This document shows positions 55,769 to 59,068 of a stretch of 64,000 bases of DNA, in pieces (position 1 is the stretch's first letter; every line of letters starts with the position of its first letter). A program made the translations under genes and the position numbers. The stretch lies in contig CASIAW010000001.1 of NCBI GenBank assembly GCA_949372875.1, forward strand, positions 186,001-250,000. Direction: 5' to 3'. The notes under the pieces were generated by a model that saw nothing but the letters and a program-made list of their open reading frames with translations, searched no databases and had not been told where the DNA came from. This stretch comes from Candidatus Poseidoniaceae archaeon. Its GTDB lineage: Archaea > Thermoplasmatota > Poseidoniia > Poseidoniales > Poseidoniaceae.

Positions 55769-55924
55769 GATTCGAGGAGAAAGAAGAGGGGCACAGTGAC
55801 TTCCTTTCCCGTGGACTCTCGTACCACAGTATTGGGATAGACGCAGGCAGGCTTGACTTCTGGGTTCGGAATGGGACCAGGTAAACACTACCGCTGTGAC
55901 CGTGCACCCATCTTCCTTCGAATC
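55769..55924 (-). other. Predicted pre-5S processing helix (inverted repeats flanking 5S)
   Basis: GAUUCGA-AGGAAGA (55911-55924) pairs with UCUUCUU-(UCUCC bulge)-UCGAAUC (55769-55787). Confidence 0.7.
55788..55909 (-). rRNA. rrf: 5S ribosomal RNA
   Basis: Minus strand GGGUGCACGGUCACAGCGGUAGUGUUUACCUGGUCCCAUUCCGAACCCAGAAGUCAAGCC...; helix I GGGUGCAC...GUGCCCC. Confidence 0.93.
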
Positions 55925-55988
55925 GGATCTATGAGTACGACGATAAACGTCGCAATGAAATATGAATTGGCATGAATTATTAGACGAA

Positions 55989-56003
55989 GGGCACTCAAGG
56001 TGC
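55989..56003 (-). other. 3' strand of predicted pre-23S processing stem
   Basis: GCACC-UU-GAGUGCCC pairs with GGGCAUUC-UCC-GGUGC at 59053-59068; flanking AUAC/GUAU extends it by 4 bp. Confidence 0.65.
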
Positions 56004-56036
56004 GGATACATACGAAAAAAAGATGCTCGAACGTTA

Positions 56037-58873
<2,837 letters not shown>

Positions 58874-59052
58874 TGTATGTTATCACACACCATATGAGTA
58901 ACCCTTCGGTATCTAATTCATGCCAATTCGGCTTCCACAGAAAACCGCCTCCTCAGGGACGGTTCTCCTCTGCCCTTCCCCCGATACATGGCGTACCAGG
59001 GTGCTTAAGCATCCCCCCGACTTACCACCTCTATATCAACGAATCGGTATGA
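58874..59052 (-). ncRNA. Unassigned structured leader RNA upstream of mature 23S (possible ncRNA)
   Basis: Lies between the processing stem and 23S helix 1. Hairpins: GAGAACCGUC-CCUGAGGA-GGCGGUUUUC (10 bp), GGG-GA-UGC-UUAA-GCA-CCC, UGUGUG-AUAA-CAUACA. No conserved 5S, SRP or RNase P motif recognised. Confidence 0.45.
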
Positions 59053-59068
59053 GCACCGGAGAATGCCC
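59053..59068 (-). other. 5' strand of predicted pre-23S processing stem
   Basis: GGGCAUUC-UCC-GGUGC: 8 bp + 3x2 internal loop + 5 bp (+ UC/CC loop + 4 bp) with the 55989-56003 side. Confidence 0.65.

What the first reader, a model, noticed from the sequence alone, without database searches (positions are those of the whole stretch)
58874..59068. Unexplained structured RNA of about 180 nt inside the pre-23S, upstream of mature 23S
23S helix 1 (GUGAUGCU/AGCAUCAC) places the mature 5' end near 58873, but the strongest pairing to the 3' trailer (GGGCAUUC.UCC.GGUGC with GCACC.UU.GAGUGCCC) begins about 195 nt further upstream. The enclosed segment is rich in stems, including a 10-bp hairpin GAGAACCGUC[CCUGAGGA]GGCGGUUUUC and a UUAA-loop hairpin. 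I could not match it to SRP, RNase P, 5S or tRNA. It could be a lineage-specific LSU extension, a processing/chaperone leader, or an independent ncRNA excised from the pre-rRNA.
Basis: partly seen in the sequence, partly recalled or inferred. Interest (0 to 1): 0.68.

Follow-up and report, generated by a model that had tools for sequence, protein, structure and literature searches.

The report
Kink-turn leader of archaeal 23S precursor
The stretch in front of this marine archaeon's large ribosomal RNA gene is its promoter followed by a conserved folded leader that carries the splicing-type cut site which releases the ribosomal RNA, plus a kink-turn hairpin of the sort a ribosomal protein binds; the cut site is textbook, the kink-turn leader appears not to have been described for this group.

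Summary
The window is from Ca. Poseidoniaceae (Marine Group II archaea); 23S lies on the minus strand at 58875-56017. (1) 59068-59011 is promoter, not RNA: a TATA box lies 24.5 nt before the inferred start G59010 in 52 of 54 relatives, and the 16S gene shares the promoter. (2) 59010-58930 is a transcribed leader with two covarying hairpins. The second has a kink-turn (tandem G.A pairs, 3-nt bulge) in 53 of 54 Poseidoniales leaders, abutting the processing stem. (3) 58929-58902 is the 5' strand of the pre-23S bulge-helix-bulge (BHB) motif; its partner is at 55991-55964, and all 26 relatives with both flanks have it, with many compensatory changes. It is not an LSU extension, RNase P, SRP or any Rfam family. 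Most likely it is the 23S 5' external spacer, cut at the BHB by splicing endonuclease, with the kink-turn as an L7Ae site. BHB processing is known; a conserved kink-turn beside the 23S BHB seems undescribed. Start site, splicing and L7Ae binding are inferred from sequence only.

The parts
59032..59039 (-). TATA box TTGATATA of the 23S-5S transcription unit
   Evidence: Centre 24.5 nt before the start G in 52 of 54 relatives, the other two with TTATATA at the same place; same box and spacing at the 16S gene
59010..59010 (-). Inferred transcription start (G of the conserved WTGC box)
   Evidence: Constant TATA spacing and conserved TGC; not measured
58979..59001 (-). Leader hairpin SL1, CCCUGGUACG/UGUAUCGGGG
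   Evidence: Covariation in both families of the order
58930..58974 (-). Kink-turn hairpin: GGC-A-GA-[stem-loop]-GUG-GA-A-GCC (GA 58970-58969 and 58935-58934; bulge 58938-58936; basal stem 58974-58972 with 58932-58930)
   Evidence: 53 of 54 leaders, basal stem GGC:GCC, GGU:ACC, GAU:AUC, GGA:UCC; strict form 42 of 48 against 0.8 in shuffles
58902..58929 (-). 5' strand of the pre-23S processing stem with BHB: helix I 58929-58916, central 4 bp 58915-58912, bulge UAC 58911-58909, helix II 58908-58902
   Evidence: 26 of 26 species with both flanks; covariation
58876..58901 (-). Inner flank between BHB and mature 23S: short further pairings with the trailer (CUC/GAG, GGUG/CACC, ACAUAC/GUAUGU)
   Evidence: Read directly from the sequence; not tested for covariation
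56017..58875 (-). 23S rRNA
   Evidence: RF02540 full length
55964..55991 (-). 3' strand of the processing stem with BHB: helix II 55991-55985, central 55984-55981, bulge AUA 55980-55978, helix I 55977-55964
55788..55907 (-). 5S rRNA
   Evidence: RF00001

Best explanation
The segment is the promoter plus 5' external transcribed spacer of a 23S-5S transcription unit that appears unlinked from 16S. Transcription starts near G59010 (inferred). The leader folds into SL1 and a kink-turn hairpin that abuts helix I of the pre-23S processing stem (structure shown by covariation). The flanks of 23S pair into a canonical BHB (shown by covariation). The splicing endonuclease EndA should cut in both bulges, between 58910/58909 and 55979/55978, and RtcB should join the ends (inferred from known archaeal biochemistry). 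That gives a circular pre-23S of about 2931 nt and a leader-spacer-5S RNA of about 292 nt, from which 5S is matured. L7Ae, which this genome encodes, most likely binds the kink-turn, bends the leader against the processing stem, and helps it fold or protects the leader product (inferred).
For: BHB in 26 of 26 species with both flanks, 56 two-sided cell changes against 16.4 +/- 3.2 in shuffles. Leader hairpins covary in both families separately. A model built only from the other family finds this leader as the single hit in 64 kb, E = 4.5e-10. Kink-turn in 53 of 54 leaders, 42 of 48 strict against 0.8 by chance. Promoter spacing constant and shared with 16S. L7Ae-family genes in the genome. Thermoplasmatota have circular 23S in transcript data (PMC12918454). 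L7Ae binds kink-turns in many archaeal RNAs (PMC5539422).
Against: No RNA data: start site, cut sites, ligation and L7Ae binding are all inferred. In f1 the basal kink-turn stem never varies, so its covariation comes from f2 and from comparing families. A few leaders depart from the strict kink-turn (L056 UA, L069 AA, L083 not fitted), and many outgroups have UA or AA in place of one GA. The eL8 match is below its curated cut-off.
Confidence: 0.74

Rival explanations
1. The leader, or the leader-5S fusion left after splicing, is a stable RNA-protein particle with a function of its own in trans, like the 16S-D RNA reported for Archaeoglobus (from memory).
For: The leader is more conserved and structured than expected for a mere linker, has a kink-turn, and BHB splicing should ligate it to the spacer and 5S.
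Against: No free-standing copies: the model gives as a rule one place per genome, just 5' of 23S where 23S is known. No guide elements were recognised. No RNA data.
Confidence: 0.13
2. The leader hairpins serve transcription (initiation, elongation or antitermination of rRNA synthesis) and the kink-turn geometry is incidental or bound by another factor.
For: The 16S leader of the same genome starts with the same promoter and also has a kink-turn hairpin, so the shared feature follows the promoter.
Against: In outgroups with 16S-tRNA-23S order (L228, L229) the similar element sits in the internal spacer next to the 23S BHB, far from the promoter. Tandem GA pairs are conserved exactly.
Confidence: 0.1
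3. A lineage-specific extension of the mature 23S that begins near 59050, as one of the reader's options.
Against: The leader lies outside the BHB cut sites. RF02540 is complete without it.
Confidence: 0.03

Closest known systems
Archaeal pre-23S bulge-helix-bulge processing stem (EndA/RtcB pathway; PMC7038931, PMC7714728, PMC12918454)
   Same: Flanks of 23S pair; two 3-nt bulges on opposite strands flank a 4-bp helix.
   Different: Nothing essential; here in a 23S-5S unit that appears separate from 16S, with a kink-turn hairpin directly against the outer helix.
16S-D RNA of Archaeoglobus fulgidus (Tang et al. 2002, NAR 30:921; from memory, paper not held)
   Same: Leader of an rRNA precursor outside a BHB, with an L7Ae-type motif, expected to be ligated to downstream spacer.
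   Different: That one is from 16S; this is from 23S and would be fused to 5S. Stability and L7Ae binding are not shown here.
L7Ae kink-turns (SRP RNA, box C/D, RNase P, l7ae mRNA leader; PMC5539422)
   Same: Standard order: stem, 3-nt bulge, tandem G.A pairs, second stem.
   Different: Sits in a pre-rRNA leader; no box C (RUGAUGA), no guide; binding untested.
16S leader of the same order
   Same: Same promoter and start motif, and a conserved kink-turn hairpin (15 of 16 species).
   Different: Longer leader; sequence looks unrelated beyond the start; the trailer looks like a terminator and no 16S BHB was seen.

Membership tests
Archaeal pre-23S BHB processing stem | 5' and 3' flanks of 23S pair with each other | tested here: met
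   96.5% of cells paired, 12 of 22 pairs with two-sided change
Archaeal pre-23S BHB processing stem | Two 3-nt bulges on opposite strands separated by 4 bp | tested here: met
   All 26 species, with small departures: L034 has a 4-nt 5' bulge and L056 one A.C in the central helix
Archaeal pre-23S BHB processing stem | Cut by EndA and ligated by RtcB | not testable with these tools
   Needs RNA junction data or biochemistry; circular 23S is reported for Thermoplasmatota in PMC12918454
Kink-turn (L7Ae type) | Two stems joined by a 3-nt bulge and tandem G.A pairs | tested here: met
   53 of 54 leaders fitted, 45 of 47 distinct with GA/GA; chance 0.8 of 48
Kink-turn (L7Ae type) | Bound by L7Ae | not testable with these tools
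   L7Ae and L30e genes present; no binding data
Box C/D sRNA | Box C RUGAUGA and box D CUGA with guides between | tested here: not met
   No RUGAUGA seen in the leader alignment; no Rfam C/D family at gathering score
16S-D type religated spacer RNA | Stable ligated leader-spacer RNA that binds L7Ae | not testable with these tools
   Predicted from the BHB only; reference paper not held
RNase P, SRP, 5S, tRNA or any Rfam family | Covariance-model match at gathering score | tested here: not met
   No hit in the leader; RNase P and SRP RNAs found elsewhere
Lineage-specific LSU extension | Contained within the mature rRNA | tested here: inconclusive
   The leader lies outside the BHB, which argues against; ends were not mapped

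The most novel reading that the evidence does not exclude
A phylum-wide L7Ae/kink-turn module set directly against the 23S BHB couples a ribosomal protein to rRNA splicing, and splicing turns the leader into an abundant leader-5S ribonucleoprotein that brings 5S to the new large subunit.
Probability: 0.15. Interest if true: 0.68.

Novelty: new variant of a known kind. Interest (0 to 1): 0.42.

Why it matters
It gives one of the commonest groups of surface-ocean archaea, known mainly from environmental genomes, a concrete model of how its 23S precursor is cut, with exact junction sequences that can be looked for in existing ocean metatranscriptomes. If L7Ae binds the kink-turn, a ribosomal protein would sit at the first processing site of the RNA it later helps build into the ribosome, a possible link between protein supply and rRNA maturation. 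The structure could also be curated as an RNA family; Rfam 15 gave no match to it.

Tried and rejected
RNase P, SRP, 5S, tRNA and other Rfam families: rejected. Coding: ORFs across the leader are short and indels between relatives break any frame. Box C/D guide: no box C seen. A 10-nt resemblance of AUUAGAUACC to the 16S 790 loop (from memory) is within what chance would give; dropped. The first regular expressions for the trailer missed most species and were replaced. MAFFT on both families together (A1) shifted the kink-turn by one column, so the families were aligned separately (A2, A3) and a covariance model was used for the joint alignment (A4). Class- and phylum-wide RF02540 scans failed on the server and were replaced by a DNA search. 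The relaxed kink-turn finder used on outgroups is permissive and was cut short in some loci by a bad anchor (e.g. L231), so its outgroup counts are not used as statistics. A 16S leader-trailer duplex scan showed no consistent cognate excess and is uninformative about a 16S BHB. Tang et al. 2002 is not held, so its content is from memory.

Full report
Where it is. The 23S gene is on the minus strand at 58875-56017 (RF02540 full length), followed by 5S at 55907-55788. The single 16S found is on another contig of the draft assembly and its near downstream flank shows no 23S, so the two appear unlinked. An exact 20-mer of the leader recurs in 70 named records, nearly all Marine Group II / Ca. Poseidoniales or Poseidoniaceae, which identifies the source group. 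In the genome searches the window's family is called f1 and the other family of the order f2.

The first 58 bases are promoter. Upstream flanks of 54 relatives align poorly above a TATA-like box and well below it. The box centre lies 24.5 nt before the G of a conserved TGC in 52 of 54 species, and the other two have TTATATA at the same place. The 16S gene of the same genome has gttgatatatgggaggtaagtggcaaggttgcttgc against gttgatatagaggtggtaagtcggggggatgcttaag for 23S, with the same spacing. The start at G59010 is therefore inferred, not measured. Its pairing with the trailer is strong in the window, but across 26 species cognate duplexes are on the whole no better than non-cognate ones.

The real processing stem. 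Leader bases 58929-58902 and spacer bases 55991-55964 form GAAUUGGCAUGAAU / AUUCAUGCCAAUUC (14 bp), UAGA / UCUA (4 bp) with bulges UAC and AUA on opposite strands, and CGAAGGG / CCCUUCG (7 bp). This is a canonical bulge-helix-bulge. All 26 species with both flanks have it, with small departures in two; the other family reads, for example, GAAUUGAUAUGCC, UGGA, CAC, CAGAGG against CCUCUG, UCCA, ACA, GGCAUAUCAAUUC. On 20 distinct sequences 96.5% of cells pair, and 56 cells change on both sides against 16.4 +/- 3.2 in shuffles and at most 15 in slid controls.

The leader hairpins. Between start and BHB are two hairpins. SL1 (59001-58979) and the second hairpin (58974-58930) were tested within each family to avoid misalignment. 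In f2 (30 sequences) 96.9% of cells pair and 16 of 26 pairs change on both sides (81 cells against 21.0 +/- 3.8 shuffled, at most 25 slid). In f1 (15 sequences) 98.3% pair, with 22 such cells against 7.3 +/- 2.6. On the joint covariance-model alignment of 52 sequences the score is 0.657 against 0.261, with the caveat that this alignment was fitted to the structure. A model built from f2 alone finds the window's leader as its only hit in 64 kb, E = 4.5e-10.

A kink-turn. The second hairpin reads GGC-A-GA-[stem-loop]-GUG-GA-A-GCC in the window, and GGU-U-GA-[stem-loop]-UGA-GA-U-ACC or similar in f2. It fits 53 of 54 leaders. Among 47 distinct ones, 45 have GA on both strands, and the 3-bp basal stem is GGU:ACC (25), GGC:GCC (16), GAU:AUC (3), GGU:GCC, GGA:UCC or GGC:GUC. 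A strict definition fits 42 of 48 leaders against a mean of 0.8 and a maximum of 3 in dinucleotide shuffles. The hairpin lies 0 to about 6 nt from helix I of the BHB (0 nt in the window). The 16S leaders of the order carry a hairpin of the same kind, for example GGCGGC-U-GA-GUC-UUCG-GAC-GAU-GA-CU-GUCGCC, in 15 of 16 species by a relaxed finder.

How far it reaches. Thirty-one leaders from other Thermoplasmatota families often show the order UGCAC, hairpin, GGGGAAG, kink-turn-like hairpin, BHB-like flank, also where 23S follows a tRNA in what looks like a linked operon (L228, L229). Several are found by the f2 model at the right place (L233 E = 2.8e-5, L248 1.3e-4, L247 3.3e-4, L244 0.0045). 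In many of them one GA is UA or AA. In a scan of 243 genomes the model passed E <= 0.1 in only three genomes outside the order, so the phylum-wide claim rests mainly on position and architecture and is moderate. Archaea outside the phylum could not be searched.

Mechanism. Shown by conservation: pairing, BHB, kink-turn geometry and promoter spacing. Inferred from established knowledge: EndA cuts the bulges and RtcB ligates (PMC7038931; PMC7714728); Thermoplasmatota have circular 23S but no circular 16S in transcript data (PMC12918454). Cutting after the second bulge base would give a 2931-nt circle and a leader-spacer-5S RNA of about 292 nt. tRNase Z matures the 5S 5' end in Haloferax (PMC7714728). 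Inferred only: L7Ae binds the kink-turn. The genome has an L7Ae gene (Pfam above its cut-off; eL8 E = 3.7e-35 but below the curated cut-off) and an L30e gene. L7Ae binds such motifs generally (PMC5539422). From memory, the A. fulgidus 16S-D RNA, a religated 5' spacer, binds L7Ae; that paper is not held.

Verdict. The BHB stem is ordinary for archaea. What goes beyond the papers searched is the deeply conserved kink-turn leader placed against the 23S BHB. Nine literature searches found no description, but most subscription papers are not held, so novelty is provisional. Classed as a new variant of a known kind.

Noticed in passing
L032:1205-1300 and L095-L117 (16S leaders): The 16S gene shares the 23S promoter and start motif, and its leader also carries a conserved kink-turn hairpin (15 of 16 species by a relaxed finder).
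   Followed up: partly
window 59031-59013 (-): A GG.GGTAAGTCG-like stretch between TATA box and start is conserved across the order and at 16S; possibly an rRNA-specific promoter element.
   Followed up: partly
window 58889-58875 (-): A local hairpin GUGUGU-GAUA-ACAUAC just before mature 23S could compete with pairing to the trailer; some relatives have a GUAA loop.
   Followed up: no
window 55960-55930 (-): A hairpin GCGACG..CGUCG in the 23S-5S spacer recurs in f1 relatives.
   Followed up: no
L057, L147, G036, G057: Probable mix-ups in public genome bins: L057 has an unrelated, AT-rich 23S flank, L147 is a Poseidoniales leader in a bin labelled Rhodobiaceae, and G036 and G057 each hold two leader matches.
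   Followed up: no
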